NCBI GenBank assembly: GCA_012517355.1
Contig: JAAYVD010000057.1
Span: 1 to 64,000 of the forward strand
Length of the DNA stretch: 64,000 nt
Reading direction: 5' to 3'
Origin: Candidatus Rifleibacteriota bacterium
Lineage (GTDB): Bacteria > Muiribacteriota > Ozemobacteria > Ozemobacterales > Ozemobacteraceae
Shown: in pieces, positions 4,401 to 13,805 of the stretch
Layout of the letters: each line of letters starts with the position of its first letter
How positions within the stretch are numbered: position 1 is the first letter of the stretch
Position numbers and translations under genes: made by a program
The notes under the pieces: generated by a model
Told to the model about the DNA's origin: nothing
What the model saw: only the letters and a program-made list of their open reading frames with translations
The model's database searches: none

Positions 4401-6070
4401 GGGTTCTTTTCCTCAGGGATGTTGAAAGTGGGGGATGCATCGGAGGGGGGAGGGGTCGTCGAGCCGCCCCCCGGGTCGGGAGACCCGGCGGGAGATGACC
4501 CGGTGGGAACCGCCTCGGCCGGGGCGGCCCCGGCAGCGGCGCTCCCCGGAGGGGCAGGGGGGGGCGGAGCGGGCCGGAACAGGGTGTCACCCGTTCCGGA
4601 AGCCCATCCTGCGCCGGGAAGGGTGGCTCCGGACGAGGCCGTTCCCCCCTCCTCGCTGCGGATGGACACCCCCAGGGAAGCGATGGCGGCCGTCACCGAC
4701 CGGCGCAGCATGGGGTCGGACTGCACCTCGGGGCGTTGCCACAACTCCTCGAGGGTCCGGCGCGGTTCGGCCAGCAGACCCATCCCATGGCTGATGACGG
4801 CCATGTGGAAATCGATCTCGGCGGAGACCGATCCCACCGCTTCCTTGATCTGGAGCATCGTCTGGTAGGCCTCGCCGGTCTGACCGTTCTTGTAGAGGGC
4901 CCAGGCGAGGGTGTCCAGGTTGTAGAAGTGGTCGGGTTGGCGTCGCACCGAGGCGCGGGCCAGCTCCAGGGCGGTGCCCAGGTCGCGGTCCAGTTCGAGG
5001 AGGGTGTAGCCGAGGTTGTTCAGGGTGCGGGGGTCCTCCGGATCGAGCTTCAGGGCCTCCCGGTAGGCCTGCACCGCCCCGTCTCCATCGCCGAGCCGCA
5101 ACCGGATGTCGGCCAGGGTCGTCCACGGCGCCGGGTCGAACGGCTTCAGGCCGGCGGCCGCCGACGCGGCGGCCTCGGCTTCGTCGAGCCGCCCGAACTG
5201 GTGCAGGGCCAGGGCCAGGTCGAGCCGGAGGCGGGCATCCCCGGAGGCCAGCCGGGCGGCCCGTTCCAGGTCCTGGAGCCCGGCGGCGGCCCGCTCCCGG
5301 TCGGCCCCGGCCACCAGCAGAAGGCCCCGCAGATGCAACGCCGGCGGGAAATCGGGCTGGGCCGCCAACGACCGTTCGAGGTTCTCGAGCGCGGGAGGGA
5401 TCTGGGAGAATTCGGCCCCCAGCCGGGCGAGCAGATACTCCCGCCGGTGCTCCGGCAGGGCCTGCACGAGCAGGAACCCCGCCACGACGGTACCGAGGAA
5501 GACGGGGGCGGCCCCGAACCGGCTCAGCCGCCGCCACCAGGACCCTTCCGACCCGTTTCCGGCCGGCTGGTCCCGCAGGATCAGCAGCGACAGACCGAGA
5601 CCCAGCAGGGGCAGGAACAGGGCGAAGACCAGGCCCAGCCGTAACCGGTCCTGGTCGGCGAAGGTCAGGCGGGGGAACCCTTCGGGCATCAGCAGTTCCT
5701 GCACGGGCTGCGCCAGCAAGGCGGCGGCGATGAGCTGGAAGGTGCCGAACACCCCGGCCCGCCAGGGCATGGTGGGCCCGAAGGGCAGGCCGAAGCTCCG
5801 GCAGACGATCCAGGCCCCGCCGCCCACCACGAGATAGGACAGGCCGAGGATGGAGACCCCGATGCCGACGCCGGTGTTGACCGGGTCGGGCAGGCCCAGG
5901 TCGAGGGCGAAGGCGATGCCGGCCAGCAGGAAGACGAAGGGGGTGGAAAAGAACAGCAGGCGGCCCCGGGCATCGAGCCCGCCGCCCGTCAGTTCGCCAC
6001 CGCACAGGGTGCAGTAGGCGGCATCGGGTCGGTTCTCCCCTCCGCACGAGGGGCAGCGCATGGCGCTCAT
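4397..6070 (-). CDS. Zinc-ribbon, multi-pass membrane TPR protein
   Basis: A predicted 557-residue protein. Its N-terminus is a zinc ribbon with two CxxC pairs (Cys 6, 9, 20, 23 in MRCPSCGG and YCTLCGG). About four or five hydrophobic segments follow between roughly 35 and 210. A TPR block then covers about 210-470, with recognisable units such as TLADIRLRLGDGDGAVQAY and TLNNLGYTLLELDRDLGTAL. The tail is rich in Gly, Pro, Ala and Ser. I chose the ATG at 6070 because it overlaps the asparaginase stop as ATGA and starts just before the zinc ribbon; the reading frame is open far upstream but that part is antisense-like to the asparaginase. A second ATG lies at 6061. A scaffold role is inferred. 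Confidence 0.75.
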   Translation of the reverse strand: MSAMRCPSCGGENRPDAAYCTLCGGELTGGGLDARGRLLFFSTPFVFLLAGIAFALDLGLPDPVNTGVGIGVSILGLSYLVVGGGAWIVCRSFGLPFGPTMPWRAGVFGTFQLIAAALLAQPVQELLMPEGFPRLTFADQDRLRLGLVFALFLPLLGLGLSLLILRDQPAGNGSEGSWWRRLSRFGAAPVFLGTVVAGFLLVQALPEHRREYLLARLGAEFSQIPPALENLERSLAAQPDFPPALHLRGLLLVAGADRERAAAGLQDLERAARLASGDARLRLDLALALHQFGRLDEAEAAASAAAGLKPFDPAPWTTLADIRLRLGDGDGAVQAYREALKLDPEDPRTLNNLGYTLLELDRDLGTALELARASVRRQPDHFYNLDTLAWALYKNGQTGEAYQTMLQIKEAVGSVSAEIDFHMAVISHGMGLLAEPRRTLEELWQRPEVQSDPMLRRSVTAAIASLGVSIRSEEGGTASSGATLPGAGWASGTGDTLFRPAPPPPAPPGSAAAGAAPAEAVPTGSSPAGSPDPGGGSTTPPPSDASPTFNIPEEKNP

Positions 6071-7080
6071 CCGGTTTCGTGGACCTCCCCGACGAACGAT
6101 TTCAGCATCATCGACTCCACGGTGGGCAGGTCCCGGGCCTGGCCCAGCACCCACATCAGCTTGACCAGGGTGGTCTCGGGGGTCATGTCCATGGCCGGGA
6201 TGGCCCCGGCCTGCAGGGCGGCCCGTCCGACCTGGTACAGTTCCATCTCGGTCGAGCCGACCATGCATTGGGTGCAGACCACCACGGGCACTCCGCGTCC
6301 GGTGGCCGCCGCGATGGCGGGACAGAGCGAGGCCTCGCCCTCGGTGGGCAGGTTCCCCGACCCGAAGCCCTCGAGCACGAGGCCCCGGTGGGTCGAGGTC
6401 AGATACTCGACCACGGCGGGCCGGATGCCTGGATAGGCGGGAACCATGGCCACGTCGGGGTCGAGGAAGGCACGCAGCAGGGGTTTGCGCTTGCTGCGGG
6501 TCCGGTAGGGTTCCTGCAGCCGGATCGACAGGCCGATGGTGCCGAGCGGCGGGGCGTTGACGCTGGTGAAGGCCTGCATGTCGAAGACCGAGGTCTTCTT
6601 GGCCCGCGGCCCGCGGATGATCAGCGAGCCGAAGACCAGGGCCACCTCGGCCAGGTCGAGGGTGGCCACCCGGAAGGCGTTGATCAGGTTGGACCGGCCG
6701 TCCGAGCCCAGGTCCTCGAGGGGCACCTGCGACCCCGTGATGACGACGGGCTTGGGGAGTTCCTGCAGCAGGAAGGAAAGGGCGGCGGCGGTGTAGGCCA
6801 TGGTGTCGGTGCCGTGGGTGACCACGAACCCGTCGTAGAAGGGCATCCGTTCGTAGATGGCCTGGGCCAGCCGCACCCACAGGCCGGGTTGCAGGTTGCT
6901 CGAGTCGACGTTGACCAGGGGCAGCACGTCGATCACGGCCAGCGCGCGCAGTTCGGGCACCCGCTCCAGGAGCATGCCGGCGTCGGCGCAGGGGGACAAC
7001 CCGCCCTCGCCGTCCGAGAGCATGGTGATCGTCCCTCCCGTCGACACCAGGAGGATGCGGGGCTTCTGCGGCTTGCTCAT
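6067..7080 (-). CDS. ansA: Type I L-asparaginase
   Basis: Hydrolyses L-asparagine to aspartate and ammonia. The 337 residues are of normal length. Both catalytic threonine motifs are present: STGGTI at 13-18 and HGTDT at about 89-93. The SDGRSNLINAF region further on supplies the family Ser/Asn signature. No signal peptide is present, so the protein is cytoplasmic, which fits the type I (AnsA) group. It lies 19 bases after the MCE gene and overlaps the next gene by ATGA. Its place among envelope lipid-transport genes has no obvious metabolic logic and may simply reflect operon growth. Confidence 0.92.
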   Translation of the reverse strand: MSKPQKPRILLVSTGGTITMLSDGEGGLSPCADAGMLLERVPELRALAVIDVLPLVNVDSSNLQPGLWVRLAQAIYERMPFYDGFVVTHGTDTMAYTAAALSFLLQELPKPVVITGSQVPLEDLGSDGRSNLINAFRVATLDLAEVALVFGSLIIRGPRAKKTSVFDMQAFTSVNAPPLGTIGLSIRLQEPYRTRSKRKPLLRAFLDPDVAMVPAYPGIRPAVVEYLTSTHRGLVLEGFGSGNLPTEGEASLCPAIAAATGRGVPVVVCTQCMVGSTEMELYQVGRAALQAGAIPAMDMTPETTLVKLMWVLGQARDLPTVESMMLKSFVGEVHETG

Positions 7081-7099: not shown

Positions 7100-8482
7100 T
7101 CAGAACTTGTACTCGATGGCGAAATTGATGTCCTTCTCGTCGGTGATGTCGTCGACCCGCAGCTGGAACTTCAGTCCCGGCCGGATGGCGTAGGCGCTGG
7201 TGAACCGCACGGTCGGGTCGCGGGTGTCGATGAAGTCGAGGCTGTAGGAAATGTCTTCGGCCCACTGGTAGTCGAGCCCGAGGCCGACCTTCGAACTGAT
7301 GACGCCGGCGCGCTTGATCAGCCTCTGCTGGGCATCGCGGGCCAGCATCAGGTTGAACAGCGGATCGCCGCCGATGTCCTCGACCCCGATGCGGTAGAAG
7401 CTGTTCTCGTTGGGGTAGAGGTCGACCAGGATGTCGGAGAAGAAGGTGTCGTCCTCCTTGTTGTAGCGCAGCAGGTATTTGAAGTCGATGCGGGTCTGCT
7501 TGATGTTGAGGAACACCTTGTCGACCGCCTGGGCGATCTTGTGGGCGTCGTCGAGGCCGGTCTTGATCTTGGTGCGGATATCCTTCTCGGTGATGATCTC
7601 CTTGACCTCGCGGCTGATCTCCTTGGCGTTGTCGGAAGCCTTGCGCAGCGATTCGACGGTGGCCCGCAGGTTGGTGGTCATCTTGCGGTCCTTGTTCAGG
7701 TCGATGATCATCTGGTCGAGGCGGTCGGACACGTCGCGGATGTTGTCGACGATCTCGCCGAGGTTCTCCTTGTTCTCGCCGGCGATGTCGTTCAGCTTCT
7801 GGCTGAAGTCCTTCATGTTGGTGACGATGCCGCGGAGGTTCTCGCGGTTGAGCTCGACCTCGTCGCGGGCTTGCTTCAGGATGTCGTCGAGGTTGGCGAC
7901 GATGCTGTCGGTCTTGTTCCGCACCGATTCGAGCATCTCCTTGACCTTTTCCGAAGCGGTTTCGGCGTTCTTGAAGATGGCCTTGGTGCTGGCCTTCAGT
8001 TCGGGATCGCCGACGATGTCCTTGGCGGAGGCGGCCAGGCCCTGCAGCTTCTTCAGCAGTTCGTTGCCCTGGTCGAACAGTTCCTCCATGCGGGTGGGAT
8101 CGGTGCCTTCGACCACCGCCTTGTCGAACACGTAGGGCGAGTTCTGGTCCCGGGTGGGGATGATCTCGACGAACTTTTCCCCCATCAGGCCGGCGGTGCC
8201 GATGGTGAAGGTGCTGCGGCGCCTGATTTTGTGCCGCTGGTCGCGGATGTAGACGTAGACGAACACCTGGTCGTCGTTGATCTCGATCCGTTCGACCTTG
8301 CCGATCTTGACGCCCGCCATCGAGACGCTCGAACCGACGGTCAGGCTGTTGACGGTGTAGAAGGTGACCGCGAAACGGTAGCCCTGCTCGGTCAGCCGCA
8401 GATCCCCGATGATGAAGATCATGTAGACGAGAAGGGCGGTCGCGGCCAGCGTGAGCATTCCTACCTTGAGCGTCGAGTTCAT
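7100..8482 (-). CDS. mlaD: MCE-domain lipid-transport protein with long coiled coil and beta-rich C-terminus (MlaD-like)
   Basis: Substrate-binding component of an Mla-type ABC phospholipid transporter with the mlaE and mlaF genes just upstream. The 460-residue protein is much longer than E. coli MlaD (about 180). An N-terminal membrane anchor (about 8-27) precedes the MCE domain (about 35-115, with SVSMAGVKIGKVERIEI and GTAGLMGEKFVEII). A long coiled-coil segment follows (about 140-315). The last 130 residues or so show alternating polar/aromatic strands, contain repeated short aspartate-rich turns, and end in EYKF with a terminal Phe, as in outer-membrane beta-barrel proteins. One polypeptide might therefore span from inner to outer membrane; that is inference. 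The domain assignment itself is strong. Confidence 0.88.
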   Translation of the reverse strand: MNSTLKVGMLTLAATALLVYMIFIIGDLRLTEQGYRFAVTFYTVNSLTVGSSVSMAGVKIGKVERIEINDDQVFVYVYIRDQRHKIRRRSTFTIGTAGLMGEKFVEIIPTRDQNSPYVFDKAVVEGTDPTRMEELFDQGNELLKKLQGLAASAKDIVGDPELKASTKAIFKNAETASEKVKEMLESVRNKTDSIVANLDDILKQARDEVELNRENLRGIVTNMKDFSQKLNDIAGENKENLGEIVDNIRDVSDRLDQMIIDLNKDRKMTTNLRATVESLRKASDNAKEISREVKEIITEKDIRTKIKTGLDDAHKIAQAVDKVFLNIKQTRIDFKYLLRYNKEDDTFFSDILVDLYPNENSFYRIGVEDIGGDPLFNLMLARDAQQRLIKRAGVISSKVGLGLDYQWAEDISYSLDFIDTRDPTVRFTSAYAIRPGLKFQLRVDDITDEKDINFAIEYKF

Positions 8483-8509: not shown

Positions 8510-9256
8510 TTACAGCAGGGTCATGGGGCCCTTGGCTTCGCCCCGGATGAACTGCTGGACCAGGGGGTCGGGGGAATGGACGATCTCTTCCTTGGTACCG
8601 ATGGCGACGATGCGGCCGCCGTAGTGGAGGGCCATCCGGTCGCCGATCCGGTAGGCCGACTGCAGGTCGTGGGTGACCACGATCGAGGTCACCCCGAGGC
8701 GCTCCTTCAGGCTGAGATGCAGCTCGTCGATGGCGCAGGTCATGATGGGGTCGAGACCGGTGGTCGGTTCGTCGTAGAGGATGATCTCGGGCTCCATGGC
8801 GATGGCCCGGGCCAGCCCGACGCGTTTGCGCATGCCGCCCGACAGCTCGGAGGGCATCAGGTGGTTCGCGCCGGGCAGGCCGACCATCTCCAGTTTTTCC
8901 GAAACGATGTGGTGGATGGCGATGTCGGACAGGCTGGTGTGTTTGCGCAGGCCGAAGGCGATGTTCTCCTCGACGGTCAGCGAGTCGAACAGCGCGGCCG
9001 ACTGGAACAGCATGCCCATGCGCATACGCAGGGCGTCGAGCCGCTTCTGGTCGAAGGTGGTGATGTCCTCGCCGTCGATCAGCACCTGCCCCTCGTCGGG
9101 TTTCAGCAACCCGATGATGTGCTTGAGCAGCACGCTCTTGCCGCACCCGGACGGTCCCAGGATGACCAGCGATTCGCCGTCGTAGATCTTCAGGTTGATG
9201 CCTTTCAGCACCTCCTTGGGACCGAACCGCTTGTTGACGTTGGAAATGATGATCAT
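8510..9256 (-). CDS. mlaF: Mla-type ABC transporter ATPase
   Basis: ATPase subunit powering the MCE/Mla lipid transporter at the inner membrane. The 248-residue product is a complete nucleotide-binding domain: Walker A GPSGCGKS at about 34-41, ABC signature LSGGMRKRVGLARAI, Walker B IILYDEPTTGLD, and the H-loop in VVTHDLQSAYRI. The start is the ATG at 9256, which overlaps the mlaE stop (ATGA). The frame stays open upstream, but that part is only a shadow of mlaE. The next gene, mlaD-like, starts 27 bases later. Confidence 0.95.
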   Translation of the reverse strand: MIIISNVNKRFGPKEVLKGINLKIYDGESLVILGPSGCGKSVLLKHIIGLLKPDEGQVLIDGEDITTFDQKRLDALRMRMGMLFQSAALFDSLTVEENIAFGLRKHTSLSDIAIHHIVSEKLEMVGLPGANHLMPSELSGGMRKRVGLARAIAMEPEIILYDEPTTGLDPIMTCAIDELHLSLKERLGVTSIVVTHDLQSAYRIGDRMALHYGGRIVAIGTKEEIVHSPDPLVQQFIRGEAKGPMTLL

Positions 9257-10047
9257 GAGGCGAGGAAGGCGCTGTTGAAGTTGTTGATGCCGACGGTCAG
9301 GAAGTAGTTGACGGCCAGGATGAACATGATGGCCAGCACCACGGCGCCGGTGGTGCTCTTGCCGACGCCCTCGGCTCCGCCCTCGGTGGTGAACCCCTTG
9401 TAACAGCCGATGATCCCGATCAGGGCCCCGAAGATCAGGCCCTTGAACAGGCCGCCCATCAGGTCCTGGATCTTGAGGTTCTGCAGGATGGAATCGACGA
9501 AGGTGGTCAAGGTCAGCCCGATCTGATTGACGGCCACGATCGAACCGCCGATCATGCCGATCACGTTGGTGAAGATCGTCAGGAAGAACAACATCAGGGT
9601 GCATCCCCAGAACCGCGGCACCACCAGGTAGTCGACCGGGTTGGTGGCCATCGTCTCGAGAGCGTCGATCTGCTCGGTGATCTTCATCGTGCCCAGCTCG
9701 GCGGCGATGGAGCTGCCGACGCGGCCGGCGACCACGATTCCCGTGAGGATGGGCGCCAGTTCCCGGGCCATGGCCATGCTGACCACGCCCCCGACGTAGC
9801 GCTGGGCACCCAGTTGCGTGAACTGGTAGCCGATCTGCACGACCAGCACCGCGCCGGTCGAGAAGCCGGTGATGGCGACCATGGGGAAGGAATCGACCCC
9901 GATGCGCGACATCTGGTCCATCAGGTTCTTGACGCCGAACCGGCCGGTCCGGATGCCGTGCAGCGTCCAGTAGACCGACTGCAGGAACAGGATGGCCAGG
10001 CTGCCGAACAGTTCGACGAATTCCCGCGCGAGTTGGACGAGGATCAT
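9253..10047 (-). CDS. mlaE: Mla-type ABC transporter permease
   Basis: Integral inner-membrane permease of the Mla/MCE phospholipid transport system. The 264 residues match the MlaE family. Typical features are the amphipathic N-terminus, the segment VAITGFSTGAVLVVQIGYQF (about 58-77), the conserved ELAPILTGIVVAGRVGSSIAAELGTM region (about 90-115, split here by helix), EQIDALETMATNP, and several C-terminal membrane helices. It starts four bases after the S55-like protease gene ends and overlaps mlaF by ATGA, so mlaE-mlaF-mlaD form a coupled unit. The transport direction cannot be told from sequence. Confidence 0.93.
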   Translation of the reverse strand: MILVQLAREFVELFGSLAILFLQSVYWTLHGIRTGRFGVKNLMDQMSRIGVDSFPMVAITGFSTGAVLVVQIGYQFTQLGAQRYVGGVVSMAMARELAPILTGIVVAGRVGSSIAAELGTMKITEQIDALETMATNPVDYLVVPRFWGCTLMLFFLTIFTNVIGMIGGSIVAVNQIGLTLTTFVDSILQNLKIQDLMGGLFKGLIFGALIGIIGCYKGFTTEGGAEGVGKSTTGAVVLAIMFILAVNYFLTVGINNFNSAFLAS

Positions 10048-10051
10048 CGGT

Positions 10052-11929
10052 TCATTCCTCGTTGAGGGAAATGGTCGTATCCACCCGGCCCAGCACGACC
10101 ACGCTGGTCGGCTGGATCTCCAGGTCCTTGTTGGCCAGCTTGATCTTCTTCACCTCTTCGCCCTCGGTGGTGAGCTGGAAAAGCAGGTCGGAGTTCTTCG
10201 GCGAGTTCACCCAGGAGGACATGGCGGCCTCGAACGACTCGGCGCTCTCCTCGGTGCGGGGTTCCTTCCCCTTGCCCGTCTCCTTGCCATCCTCGGCGGG
10301 AACGGTGTCCTCCAGCTTGGCGTTGAGGCTGAACACGGTCAGGGTGAGGTTCTCCTTGCCGATGTCGTGGGGGATCGGCAGCTTGGCCTTGCGCACCAGG
10401 CTCTTTTCCCGGTAGGGGCGGATGGTCACCCAGGCCTCCAGGACCCCGCCCGGGGTCACCGAGGTGTTCTTGACCTCCACCTTCTCGATGGTCAGGGTCC
10501 GGCGGGCCTTCTCCACCTCCACCTTCAGCATCAGGCGGGTGGGGAAGACCTCCTCGAGGTCGCTGTCGATGACCGACTCGAGCAGGGAGGTCACCTCGTC
10601 GACCAGGGTGCCGACGATGTCGGATTTGGCATAGAACAGGTTCTCGCGCCGGAACTGGTACTGCTTGCCGGTCGGATTTGCGCACTCCAGGGCGATGCCC
10701 AAAAGGGCGGTCCCTTCCCCCTCTCGGTCGATGACCTCCTCGATCCCCTGGCTCAGGGTCGACTCGATGACCGAGATGAACACGGTGGGATCGCGCACCA
10801 CCTGGTAGTTGATGCTGCGCGACCGCTTCAGATCCTTGTCCGAGATCTCGAGCTGGATGGGGACCATCACGGGGAACCGGCCGATCTCGCCGGCGATGCC
10901 TTTTTCCCGGTCCTGGGTGATGATGCCTACCATCTCGGTCGGGGCGCCGATCTTGAACGGCATCTGCACGCTGGAGAAGCTGTGGTAGATGTGGGTGCCG
11001 GTCATCAAAAAGGACACGTTCCCCTTCTTGAGGAAGGGGTGGGCGAAGCCCAGGATGCGCTTGCCGTCGCGATGGGTGAGGGTGCCGATGGTCGTCAGGT
11101 TGATGTCGCCGCGCGCCAGCTGGACGCCGAGCGCGGAACCGGGCTCGAGGGTCTCGGAGGCCGACCCGGCGGGGCGGGCGGGGGCAGGGCCGGGGTTCAG
11201 GCCGGGCAGGTTCGGGGCGGAAGCGATCATGGGCACGGAGACGGCCTGCAGGTGCCGGCCCTTGAGCCGCCGGTTCAGCACGAGCAACGATTTTTCCGAC
11301 AACCCCTGCACCACCACGGGGGAGGAGACCCTGACGAACAGCGGGTCCCCGGCGGGAATGCCGCACCGCTGGCGGTCGGCGGGATCGTCCACCTCCCACA
11401 GGTGGGTGAAGGACGTGGTTCCCAGCCGGATCGGCCGGGCGCTGGCCCACCGGACCGGGTTTCCGTCTTCGCCGCCCGGGGCGCGGCTGGTCAGCGGGTA
11501 GTCCCAGATGTCGAGCATCTCCTCGATGGGGGTGACCAGGCCGACCGTGTGGTCGGTCATCACCCACCCGGAACTCAGGCCCCCGACCAGGCGGTTGTTG
11601 ATGTAGACGGGACTGCCGCTCATGCCGGCCGCGATGCCGCCGGCCTCCTCGATCACCTTGCCGCCCACCTTGACCAGGATGGACTGGCCGGAGATCAGGA
11701 TGTTCTCGTTCAGCTTGTTGTTCGACAGGATGCCCATGACCTCGACGGTGAAGGTGGCGATCTCCCGGCCATGGATGACCGTTTTGCCGAAGCCCTTCAT
11801 GCCGACCTTCACGTCCTTCAGGGGAAGGAATTCCTCATCGGCCGCGGCGGCCATCCAGCCCGTTCCCAGGACGGCCAGCACTACGGCGAGCGCGCGCCAG
11901 AGATCAGTTTTTCGTGATGACGATGCCAT
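10052..11929 (-). CDS. Exported SpoIVB/S55-peptidase-like protein
   Basis: A 625-residue secreted or anchored protein; residues about 9-30 form a signal peptide ending in AAAADEE. The N-terminal third resembles the SpoIVB peptidase S55 domain: KVGMKGFGKTVIHG near 41-54 and AAGMSGSPVYINNRLVGG near 100-117, where Ser104 lies in the position of the S55 nucleophile. The long C-terminal part (about 250-600) contains an FAHPFLKKG segment and strand-rich regions I do not recognise. In spore formers SpoIVB acts in sigma signalling; nothing here suggests sporulation, so an envelope protease or scaffold is more likely. Its start overlaps the end of the upstream glycosidase gene by 26 bases. Only the S55-like N-terminus is assigned with confidence. 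Confidence 0.75.
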   Translation of the reverse strand: MASSSRKTDLWRALAVVLAVLGTGWMAAAADEEFLPLKDVKVGMKGFGKTVIHGREIATFTVEVMGILSNNKLNENILISGQSILVKVGGKVIEEAGGIAAGMSGSPVYINNRLVGGLSSGWVMTDHTVGLVTPIEEMLDIWDYPLTSRAPGGEDGNPVRWASARPIRLGTTSFTHLWEVDDPADRQRCGIPAGDPLFVRVSSPVVVQGLSEKSLLVLNRRLKGRHLQAVSVPMIASAPNLPGLNPGPAPARPAGSASETLEPGSALGVQLARGDINLTTIGTLTHRDGKRILGFAHPFLKKGNVSFLMTGTHIYHSFSSVQMPFKIGAPTEMVGIITQDREKGIAGEIGRFPVMVPIQLEISDKDLKRSRSINYQVVRDPTVFISVIESTLSQGIEEVIDREGEGTALLGIALECANPTGKQYQFRRENLFYAKSDIVGTLVDEVTSLLESVIDSDLEEVFPTRLMLKVEVEKARRTLTIEKVEVKNTSVTPGGVLEAWVTIRPYREKSLVRKAKLPIPHDIGKENLTLTVFSLNAKLEDTVPAEDGKETGKGKEPRTEESAESFEAAMSSWVNSPKNSDLLFQLTTEGEEVKKIKLANKDLEIQPTSVVVLGRVDTTISLNEE

Positions 11930-13532
11930 TGGAGATCGGTCGTTCCCTTCCGTCGGAGGGGCGGTTCACCACCCGTCCCTTGACGAGCATGGTGGAAGAG
12001 CCGCCGCCGTCGAGATTGATGCCGTGGCGCCCTCCCAGCCGTTTCAGATAGGAGGCCAGTTCCATCAGGGTCATGCCGGCGCTGCGCGCCGACCGGCCGT
12101 CGACCACGAGGAACAGCAGGTCGCCGTTGTAGGTCTGGGCGACCGCGGTGCGGGGGTGGCGGCCGTTGGTGATCGAGGAGTCGAATTTCTCCTGCTTGCC
12201 GTTGATGTCGATCCGGCCGTCGGCGAGGAGACGTGGCCCTCCGCAGACCGCGTGCTGGACCGTGGTCCAGGGCGGGTTGATCCGGTAGTCGAGGGTCACG
12301 GCATCGCCCAGGCGCACCCCGTCGAGGGCGGCGGCCTTCCGGCCGCCGGCCGAGACCACCACACCGTCGGGGGGGATGATCGCATCGCGCTCGTGGATGC
12401 CCACGACCCGGCCCTGCACCAGCACCAGCTCCTTCCCGGGCTCGGCGGTCATGGTGCTGCGGGCGAATTCGGGAGTGAAGATCACCAGGGAGTCCCCGGC
12501 GCGCGGTTGGTTGACCGCGTCGATGTCGATGCGGTCGGCCCCTGTCTCGAGCGCCCCCGAAAAGTCGGGGTTGCCAAACAGGGGGGTGCCGGTGGTGGAG
12601 ATGCCGAACACCGATCGGTTGTAGAGGGGTGAACTGATCAGGCGGCGGTTGATGATCAGGGTGCCGATGGGATCGCCACGCTGGGTGAAATAGCACCCGT
12701 TGATCGCGGCCACCGCATCGTAGCGCCGGCCGATCGAGCTGAGGATCTCCTTCTGGCAGATGCCCTCGTTGGCCAGCACGGGCACCACGCTGACCGAGGA
12801 TTCGAAGGGTTCCACCCGCAGGAGGAAGACGTCGGCCGGTCCCGCGGCGGTGGGAACACGGTCCCGGAAGTAGGTGACCCCTTCGGCCAGGGTTTCCCCG
12901 CCCGGGAGGGGGAATTCCGTGTCCTTCGCCTGGAAGGGGACGACGAGCTGGGTCAGCCCGGCCGCCGAGGTGGCCAGGTAGGGCTCCCCGATCTTTCCTC
13001 CGGCGTAGAACACGAACTCGGAATAGCGGGGGCCGCGATACTGCGAGAACTTCTGGAAAATGGTGCCCAGCTCGTCGGCCGTCTCCTTGGCCAGCAGGGT
13101 CAGGGCGGGTTGGACCCGGAGCCGGAGCAGCTTGCCGCGGTGGGTGAGCTTGGCGAAACGCACCGGCCCCGCCAGGTCGATCTCCAGTTTCTGGAAGGGG
13201 GCATCCTCACGATGGGTGATCCCTTGGATGGCGATCTCCTCGGGAGCGGTTGCCGGGGCCGCGGGAACGACCGTGGCCGAGGCGGGGATGGAGGGGGTGG
13301 GGGACGTGGGAACGACCGCGGCGGAGCTGGCGGGCGGAACCAGGACGACCCGCTCGACGGCGGAGGCCGTGCCGGAGGCCTGCATGGCATACTGCGCCGG
13401 GCCTTCCTCGCGGTTCCCGGTGACCAGGGACCGGTCCTGGACGATGGCGCCGACCAGGAACACCTGCCCCAGCAGGAGCAGCCCCAGAAATTGTTTCAGC
13501 GATTCTTTGATGGCGATTCCCCCTCGGGACAT
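11904..13532 (-). CDS. Exported phosphodiester glycosidase (NAGPA-domain) protein
   Basis: A predicted 542-residue exported protein. Its signal-anchor is about 14-32 (FLGLLLLGQVFLVGAIV). A linker rich in Ala, Pro, Ser and Thr and an AMIN-like beta segment (about 110-180) follow. The C-terminal 300 residues form a NAGPA domain: AINGCYFTQRGDPIG, the NGRHPRTAVAQT segment, LFLVVDGRS and the hallmark LDGGGSSTM. This family includes enzymes that remove phosphodiester-linked sugars and proteins of exopolysaccharide clusters. I take the ATG at 13532 because it lies just before the hydrophobic anchor and has a GGAAG-type ribosome-binding site; the frame is open to 13703 but that extension is Pro/Gly/Ser-rich shadow. 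It is the first gene of the eleven-gene minus run. Confidence 0.8.
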   Translation of the reverse strand: MSRGGIAIKESLKQFLGLLLLGQVFLVGAIVQDRSLVTGNREEGPAQYAMQASGTASAVERVVLVPPASSAAVVPTSPTPSIPASATVVPAAPATAPEEIAIQGITHREDAPFQKLEIDLAGPVRFAKLTHRGKLLRLRVQPALTLLAKETADELGTIFQKFSQYRGPRYSEFVFYAGGKIGEPYLATSAAGLTQLVVPFQAKDTEFPLPGGETLAEGVTYFRDRVPTAAGPADVFLLRVEPFESSVSVVPVLANEGICQKEILSSIGRRYDAVAAINGCYFTQRGDPIGTLIINRRLISSPLYNRSVFGISTTGTPLFGNPDFSGALETGADRIDIDAVNQPRAGDSLVIFTPEFARSTMTAEPGKELVLVQGRVVGIHERDAIIPPDGVVVSAGGRKAAALDGVRLGDAVTLDYRINPPWTTVQHAVCGGPRLLADGRIDINGKQEKFDSSITNGRHPRTAVAQTYNGDLLFLVVDGRSARSAGMTLMELASYLKRLGGRHGINLDGGGSSTMLVKGRVVNRPSDGRERPISNGIVITKN

Positions 13533-13805
13533 GCCTAGGGTCTTCCAGACTATCGGCAGATCATCGGCCGGGGTTGAGGCTCCCCCGGGGAAGGCGGCCC
13601 CGGGCGGTTGGAGATTCCTGGACGGGGGGCGTCCGGATCTGGACGGAGCGGGGGAAGACGGCCGGCCAAAGGTGAACGCGGCCGGCCCCTCCTTGCCCGT
13701 CAATCAGCCATGGATGCACGTTTCTTCCGATCCTGGCCGCCTGGCATGTCCATTGCTTCTACCTGGATGAAGGTGACCGACAGATCGCAACGGAAGGAGA
13801 AACCC

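What the first reader, a model, noticed from the sequence alone, without database searches (positions are those of the whole stretch)
7100..8482. MCE protein with outer-membrane-like C-terminal part
Seen: anchor, MCE domain and long coiled coil, then about 130 residues of alternating pattern ending in Phe (EYKF). Known: a C-terminal aromatic residue is typical of outer-membrane barrels, and MCE proteins normally end in helical or short regions. Inference: one chain may bridge inner and outer membranes in place of a separate lipoprotein such as MlaA.
Basis: partly seen in the sequence, partly recalled or inferred. Interest (0 to 1): 0.58.

Follow-up and report, generated by a model that had tools for sequence, protein, structure and literature searches.

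The report
Lipid-transport protein bridging both membranes
This gene encodes a long MlaD-type lipid-transport protein whose tail is predicted to be a small outer-membrane barrel, so that one chain spans the cell envelope; it is a further member of a protein type already described in 2023 in Veillonella.

Summary
Window 7100-8482 (minus strand) encodes 460 residues: inner-membrane anchor, MCE domain, about 193 helical residues, and a C-terminal domain (331-460) that AlphaFold2, run on residues 308-460 alone, predicts as ten antiparallel strands (mean pLDDT 88.7, pTM 0.77). All 28 aligned proteins end in Phe. The closest public records are Candidatus Ozemobacter and Riflebacteria. The gene is the last of mlaE-mlaF-mlaD. 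No MlaC was found in the genome, and its one MlaA match was a weak, sub-threshold hit to a helical lipoprotein. MlaA is absent from 39 of 39 genomes of the phylum. BamA, TamB and LpxC are present. A Megamonas MlaD, from the same class as Veillonella, matches our barrel profile over 145 columns (hhalign 98.9%). Verdict: new member of a known kind, low interest. How six narrow barrels would pass lipids remains open.

The parts
7100..8482 (-). mlaD, elongated type: anchor + MCE + helical region + C-terminal barrel, 460 aa
8408..8476 (-). residues 3-25, N-terminal transmembrane anchor (inner membrane)
   Evidence: helix 3-25 in the model; fold matches to MlaD/Mce1 chains
8156..8386 (-). residues 33-109, MCE (MlaD) domain
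   Evidence: PF02470, E 9.4e-17
7511..8089 (-). residues 132-324, long helical region, presumed periplasm-spanning tube of the hexamer
   Evidence: helices with pLDDT under 50; one single-residue indel in this region among 22 family sequences
7103..7492 (-). residues 331-460, ten-stranded barrel, presumed in the outer membrane
   Evidence: C-terminal model pLDDT 88.7, pTM 0.77; fold matches to omptins and designed transmembrane barrels
7103..7126 (-). residues 453-460, NFAIEYKF, C-terminal strand resembling the outer-membrane-protein beta-signal (motif recalled)
   Evidence: 22 of 28 fit the strict form, 26 of 28 with Ala allowed for Gly; the window protein has Ala
8510..9256 (-). mlaF, ABC ATPase
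   Evidence: PF00005 E 6.3e-36; NCBIfam best hit MlaF, below its cut-off
9253..10047 (-). mlaE, permease
   Evidence: PF02405 E 4.4e-79; TIGR00056 over cut-off

Best explanation
The gene is an elongated MlaD, the substrate-binding subunit of a minimal three-gene Mla system (mlaE-mlaF-mlaD). The N-terminal helix anchors it next to the MlaE/MlaF ABC transporter in the inner membrane. Six MCE domains should form a ring, the helices a hydrophobic tube across the periplasm, and each chain should end in a ten-stranded barrel inserted in the outer membrane. Glycerophospholipid would move along the tube between outer and inner membrane with ATP hydrolysis by MlaF, most likely from outer to inner, so that no MlaA lipoprotein or MlaC shuttle is needed. 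Shown here: gene order, domain order, predicted barrel, homology to a Negativicutes MlaD barrel, and no credible MlaA/MlaC match. Inferred: hexamer, membrane insertion, lipid cargo and direction, all from V. parvula and E. coli work.
For: MlaE-MlaF-MCE order in 27 of 29 loci examined; the other two are cut by contig ends. Barrel prediction. Fold matches: Y. pestis Pla, a ten-stranded omptin (strand count recalled), Z 15.0, rmsd 2.6 over 126 residues, and a designed transmembrane barrel TMB10, Z 12.6. Terminal Phe 28 of 28. Outer-membrane-type C-terminal motif 26 of 28 in the loose form. Hydrophobic face 3% charged, polar face 39% charged. Even strand number puts both barrel ends on the periplasmic side (inference). 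Megamonas MlaD C-terminus matched by the Riflebacteria-side profile, hhalign 98.9%, E 1.5e-17, 145 columns. V. parvula barrel construct co-fractionates with TolC, and its barrel has ten strands (PMC10665443). MlaA 0 of 39, MlaC over cut-off 0 of 39 in the phylum. BamA, TamB, LpxC present.
Against: The full-length model is poor (pLDDT 53.6, helical part under 50). The fold search also returns soluble barrels (nitrobindin-like Rv2717c Z 12.6, fatty-acid/retinoid-binding proteins Z about 8.5), so the fold alone does not prove membrane insertion. The polar face is not more conserved than the hydrophobic one (entropy 1.59 against 1.74, p 0.45). Hexamers were not modelled.
Confidence: 0.86

Rival explanations
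1. The C-terminal domain is a soluble periplasmic up-and-down barrel of the fatty-acid-binding or nitrobindin kind that receives lipid near the outer membrane, rather than a membrane barrel.
For: Soluble ten-stranded barrels are among the fold matches, e.g. Rv2717c Z 12.6 over 132 residues, nitrobindin Z 12.2. Loops on both ends of the predicted barrel are short.
Against: Outer-membrane-type C-terminal strand in 26 of 28, Phe last in 28 of 28; homologous V. parvula barrel sits in the outer-membrane fractions (PMC10665443); best Foldseek and VIA matches are mostly membrane barrels.
Confidence: 0.08
2. The barrel only anchors the tube; lipids enter or leave through another, unidentified outer-membrane partner. 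This is a variant of the best explanation and overlaps with it.
For: Grasekamp et al. note that the predicted barrel is too narrow for a phospholipid. The predicted polar face is 39% charged, which would fill a narrow lumen if it faces inward (inference).
Against: No candidate partner gene in the conserved cluster; the conserved neighbours upstream are an S55-peptidase-like and an NAGPA-like gene.
Confidence: 0.35
3. The alternating C-terminus is a chance pattern in a disordered tail.
For: Low confidence (about 60) of this part in the full-length model.
Against: Domain alone at pLDDT 88.7; a profile of the domain matches 103 of 381 genomes searched; 0 of 5000 permutations reach the face contrast.
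Confidence: 0.01

Closest known systems
Elongated MlaD with C-terminal barrel of Veillonella parvula (MlaEFD system; Grasekamp et al. 2023, PMC10665443)
   Same: Anchor, MCE, long helical region, ten-stranded C-terminal barrel; mlaE-mlaF-mlaD gene order; no MlaA or MlaC; TamB in the genome; homologous barrel shown against Megamonas.
   Different: Longer helical region (about 193 against about 150 residues). Upstream NAGPA-like and S55-like genes; no tolC next to mlaD, whereas the Megamonas locus has one.
E. coli MlaD (MlaFEDB)
   Same: Anchor and MCE domain; fold matches to MlaD chains; NCBIfam TIGR04430 69 bits, below its 135 cut-off.
   Different: E. coli MlaD has 183 residues, no long helix and no barrel, and works with MlaC and MlaA.
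Mycobacterial Mce1 complex (8fed/8fef)
   Same: MCE domain followed by long helices; best full-length fold matches.
   Different: Heterohexamer; as cited in PMC10665443, one strand per chain forms a six-stranded barrel. Here each chain carries ten strands.
PqiAB
   Same: MCE proteins that span the periplasm; a PqiA-like and a two-MCE protein exist elsewhere in this genome.
   Different: Separate locus, several MCE domains, no ABC permease/ATPase of the MlaEF type seen in that stretch.

Membership tests
MlaD / MCE family | MCE domain over the Pfam cut-off | tested here: met
   PF02470 61.5 bits, cut-off 25.1
MlaD / MCE family | Encoded with MlaE permease and ABC ATPase | tested here: met
   mlaE-mlaF-mlaD adjacent in the window; same order in 27 of 29 loci, 2 cut by contig ends
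E. coli-type equivalog MlaD (TIGR04430) | Score over the equivalog cut-off | tested here: not met
   69 bits, cut-off 135; so not filed as E. coli-type MlaD
Elongated transenvelope MlaD (Grasekamp 2023) | Long helical region after the MCE domain | tested here: met
   helices 132-324 in the model, low confidence
Elongated transenvelope MlaD (Grasekamp 2023) | C-terminal barrel of ten antiparallel strands | tested here: met
   ten strands, pLDDT 88.7; ten strands in V. parvula
Elongated transenvelope MlaD (Grasekamp 2023) | Sequence homology of the barrel to a Negativicutes MlaD | tested here: met
   hhalign 98.9%, E 1.5e-17, 145 columns against Megamonas; V. parvula itself was not compared
Elongated transenvelope MlaD (Grasekamp 2023) | Absence of MlaA and MlaC (a tendency of the type, not a strict rule) | tested here: met
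   no match over either family's cut-off in the own genome; phylum MlaA 0 of 39, MlaC over cut-off 0 of 39. The sub-threshold MlaA hit is a helical lipoprotein
Elongated transenvelope MlaD (Grasekamp 2023) | Barrel located in the outer membrane | not testable with these tools
   needs cell fractionation
Elongated transenvelope MlaD (Grasekamp 2023) | Hexamer with hydrophobic tunnel | not testable with these tools
   no multimer prediction available
Outer-membrane beta-barrels | C-terminal aromatic residue and beta-signal-like last strand (motif recalled) | tested here: met
   Phe last in 28 of 28; motif 22 of 28 strict, 26 of 28 loose; the window protein meets only the loose form
Outer-membrane beta-barrels | Hydrophobic face outward | tested here: inconclusive
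   faces are clearly separated, but which one is outside could not be measured without coordinates

The most novel reading that the evidence does not exclude
The helical length acts as a ruler matched to a wide periplasm, and the six ten-stranded barrels, joined side by side or as a ring, form the lipid gate in the outer membrane, an arrangement for which I know of no structure. In this family the protein length stays at 460-461 residues while the helical part falls to 36% pairwise identity.
Probability: 0.15. Interest if true: 0.5.

Novelty: new member of a known kind. Interest (0 to 1): 0.2.

Why it matters
It adds Riflebacteria and relatives, a group whose name does not occur in the main text of the 2023 paper, to the bacteria with a minimal three-gene Mla system, and agrees with the claim that the shuttle-and-lipoprotein form of Proteobacteria is the exception. 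The near-constant length of the helical region gives a simple testable prediction about periplasm width. Otherwise the finding is already explained.

Tried and rejected
MlaA elsewhere: the single weak match in the own genome (E 0.03, 16 bits) lies in a 196-residue helical lipoprotein ('helical lipoprotein' is my reading of the sequence, not a search); rejected as MlaA. MlaC elsewhere: none in the own genome. Four of 39 phylum genomes gave sub-threshold matches. I read two of the four: the ORF at the L082 match is a lipoprotein with a carboxypeptidase-regulatory-like tail, the one at L084 a small secreted protein (both labels are my reading, not a search). The other two were not read.

Conserved polar face as proof of an inward-facing salt-bridge network: tested and not supported (p 0.45).

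Solved relative of the barrel: none by sequence (best E 1).

A ViennaRNA fold of 51 bases at the mlaD-asparaginase junction gave nothing (z 0.45).

Own-genome Pqi system as the missing partner: it is a PqiA-like plus two-MCE protein at another locus; kept as a separate pathway. PqiC was not searched.

Rows dropped before counts: of 42 loci, 27 went into the alignments A2 and A4; left out were L056 (cut at residue 215), L058 (near copy of L057), L064 and L065 (other tails, not read as barrels) and L066-L076 (short matches over the MCE part only). Absence of a family from the VIA list is not used as evidence.

In one search a count for 'strong' barrels was also printed with a hand-made exclusion list that left out two rows under E 1e-3, and a count restricted to MlaE-bearing genomes that relied on my reading of the listing; neither is used.

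Full report
What is there. The ORF 8482-7100 on the minus strand encodes 460 residues. Residues 33-109 match the MlaD/MCE domain of Pfam (E 9.4e-17). AlphaFold2 on a 28-row alignment gives an N-terminal helix (3-25), the MCE domain, helices from 132 to 324 and ten strands from 331 to 459; mean pLDDT is only 53.6, the helical part under 50 and the strands about 60. Residues 308-460 predicted alone give pLDDT 88.7 and pTM 0.77 with ten strands: in protein numbering 331-341, 346-356, 361-368, 375-382, 388-395, 398-408, 411-418, 424-434, 437-444, 451-459.

More than chance. The alternation of hydrophobic and polar positions exceeds shuffles by the beta-moment measure (12 of 2000 reach it) though not by a second one (166 of 2000). 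On the predicted strands the two faces differ by 1.12 units against 0.47 expected, 0 of 5000 permutations. The hydrophobic face is 3% charged and 25% aromatic, the other 39% charged. All 28 aligned proteins end in Phe. The last eight residues fit the outer-membrane beta-signal pattern (recalled) in 22 of 28 strictly and 26 of 28 when Ala may stand for Gly; the window protein, NFAIEYKF, is of the second sort. The polar face is not more conserved than the other (p 0.45), so that expected sign of a barrel lumen is missing.

Fold. Foldseek and VIA matches of the C-terminal model are mostly membrane barrels: Pla of Yersinia pestis (Z 15.0, rmsd 2.6, 126 aligned), a designed transmembrane barrel TMB10 (Z 12.6), OmpT and others. 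Soluble barrels are also listed (Rv2717c Z 12.6, nitrobindin Z 12.2). The fold alone therefore does not decide between membrane and soluble.

Surroundings. The gene follows mlaE (10047-9253) and mlaF (9256-8510). In 29 loci compared, MlaE-MlaF-MCE stand in this order in 27; the other two loci are cut by contig ends. An S55-peptidase-like gene lies upstream in 24 of 29 and an NAGPA-like gene in 20 of 29; the Megamonas locus and two Wallbacteria loci lack both. The closest public records are Candidatus Ozemobacter sibiricus (86%) and other Candidatus Riflebacteria.

The genome. The 7.1-Mb, 184-contig assembly (96% complete) has this MCE protein and one other MCE locus, a PqiA-like plus two-MCE protein. 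MlaC is not found; the only MlaA match is weak and lies in a helical lipoprotein. In the phylum MlaA is found in 0 of 39 genomes and MlaC over the cut-off in 0 of 39, with 4 sub-threshold matches, of which two were read and do not look like MlaC to me. BamA-type Omp85, TamB and LpxC are present, so this is a diderm that should make lipid A (the last step is inference).

Relation to what is known. Grasekamp et al. 2023 (PMC10665443; I read the abstract, sections 8 and 9 in full, and passages) describe an elongated MlaD in Veillonella parvula: anchor, MCE domain, about 150 helical residues and a ten-stranded C-terminal barrel, in an MlaEFD-only system. The separate barrel construct was found in the outer-membrane fractions with TolC, and the type is reported as widespread and tending to co-occur with absence of MlaA and MlaC. 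Here, a profile of 16 C-termini from the window's side matches the Megamonas (Negativicutes) C-terminus over 145 columns at 98.9%. V. parvula's own sequence was not at hand. The word Riflebacteria does not occur in that paper's main text; searches for Riflebacteria with outer membrane and for two or more of Riflebacteria, Ozemobacter, MlaD, phospholipid transport and cell envelope (12 of 234 listed) showed no paper on this protein.

Distribution. A profile of the C-terminal domain finds 103 of 381 genomes at E 0.01. Two of these 103 have MlaA against 32 of the other 278; outside the phylum 2 of 73 against 32 of 269 (Fisher one-sided p 0.011, not corrected for relatedness). This agrees with the published tendency.

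A detail. Among 22 family sequences the MlaD length is 460 or 461, with one single-residue indel near residue 234 and one near residue 386, although mean pairwise identity of the helical part is 0.59 (lowest 0.36). The neighbouring asparaginase, more conserved overall (0.71), has more internal gaps per pair (0.90 against 0.34), while MlaE and MlaF, still more conserved, have none. A helical part under length constraint is what a periplasm-spanning tube would show; this is suggestive only.

How it likely works. Six chains would form the MCE ring on MlaEF, a helical tube across the periplasm and an outer-membrane anchorage of ten-stranded barrels; lipid would pass along the tube, driven by MlaF. 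The hexamer, the membrane insertion, the cargo and the direction are inferred from homologues. The barrel is held to be too narrow for a phospholipid, so the way in or out of the outer membrane is open.

Verdict. The observation and the interpretation are sound, but the protein is a new member of a known kind.

Noticed in passing
   Followed up: partly
window 10052-13703 (-): An S55/SpoIVB-peptidase-like gene (10052-11929) and an NAGPA-like phosphodiester glycosidase gene (11904-13703) lie upstream of mlaE and are kept there in 24 and 20 of 29 loci; no role in lipid transport is known to me.
   Followed up: partly
L086:3122-6685 (-) (own genome, contig C6): A PqiA-like gene and a 487-aa protein with two MCE stretches, next to a 486-aa protein with a weak match to PF13557: a second, Pqi-like lipid pathway.
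   Followed up: partly
window 6067-7080 (-): An asparaginase gene directly follows mlaD and is found beside it in most family loci.
   Followed up: no
own genome, contig C19:25871-30391: An Omp85/BamA-type gene and lpxC lie within 5 kb of each other, suggesting an outer-membrane gene cluster.
   Followed up: no
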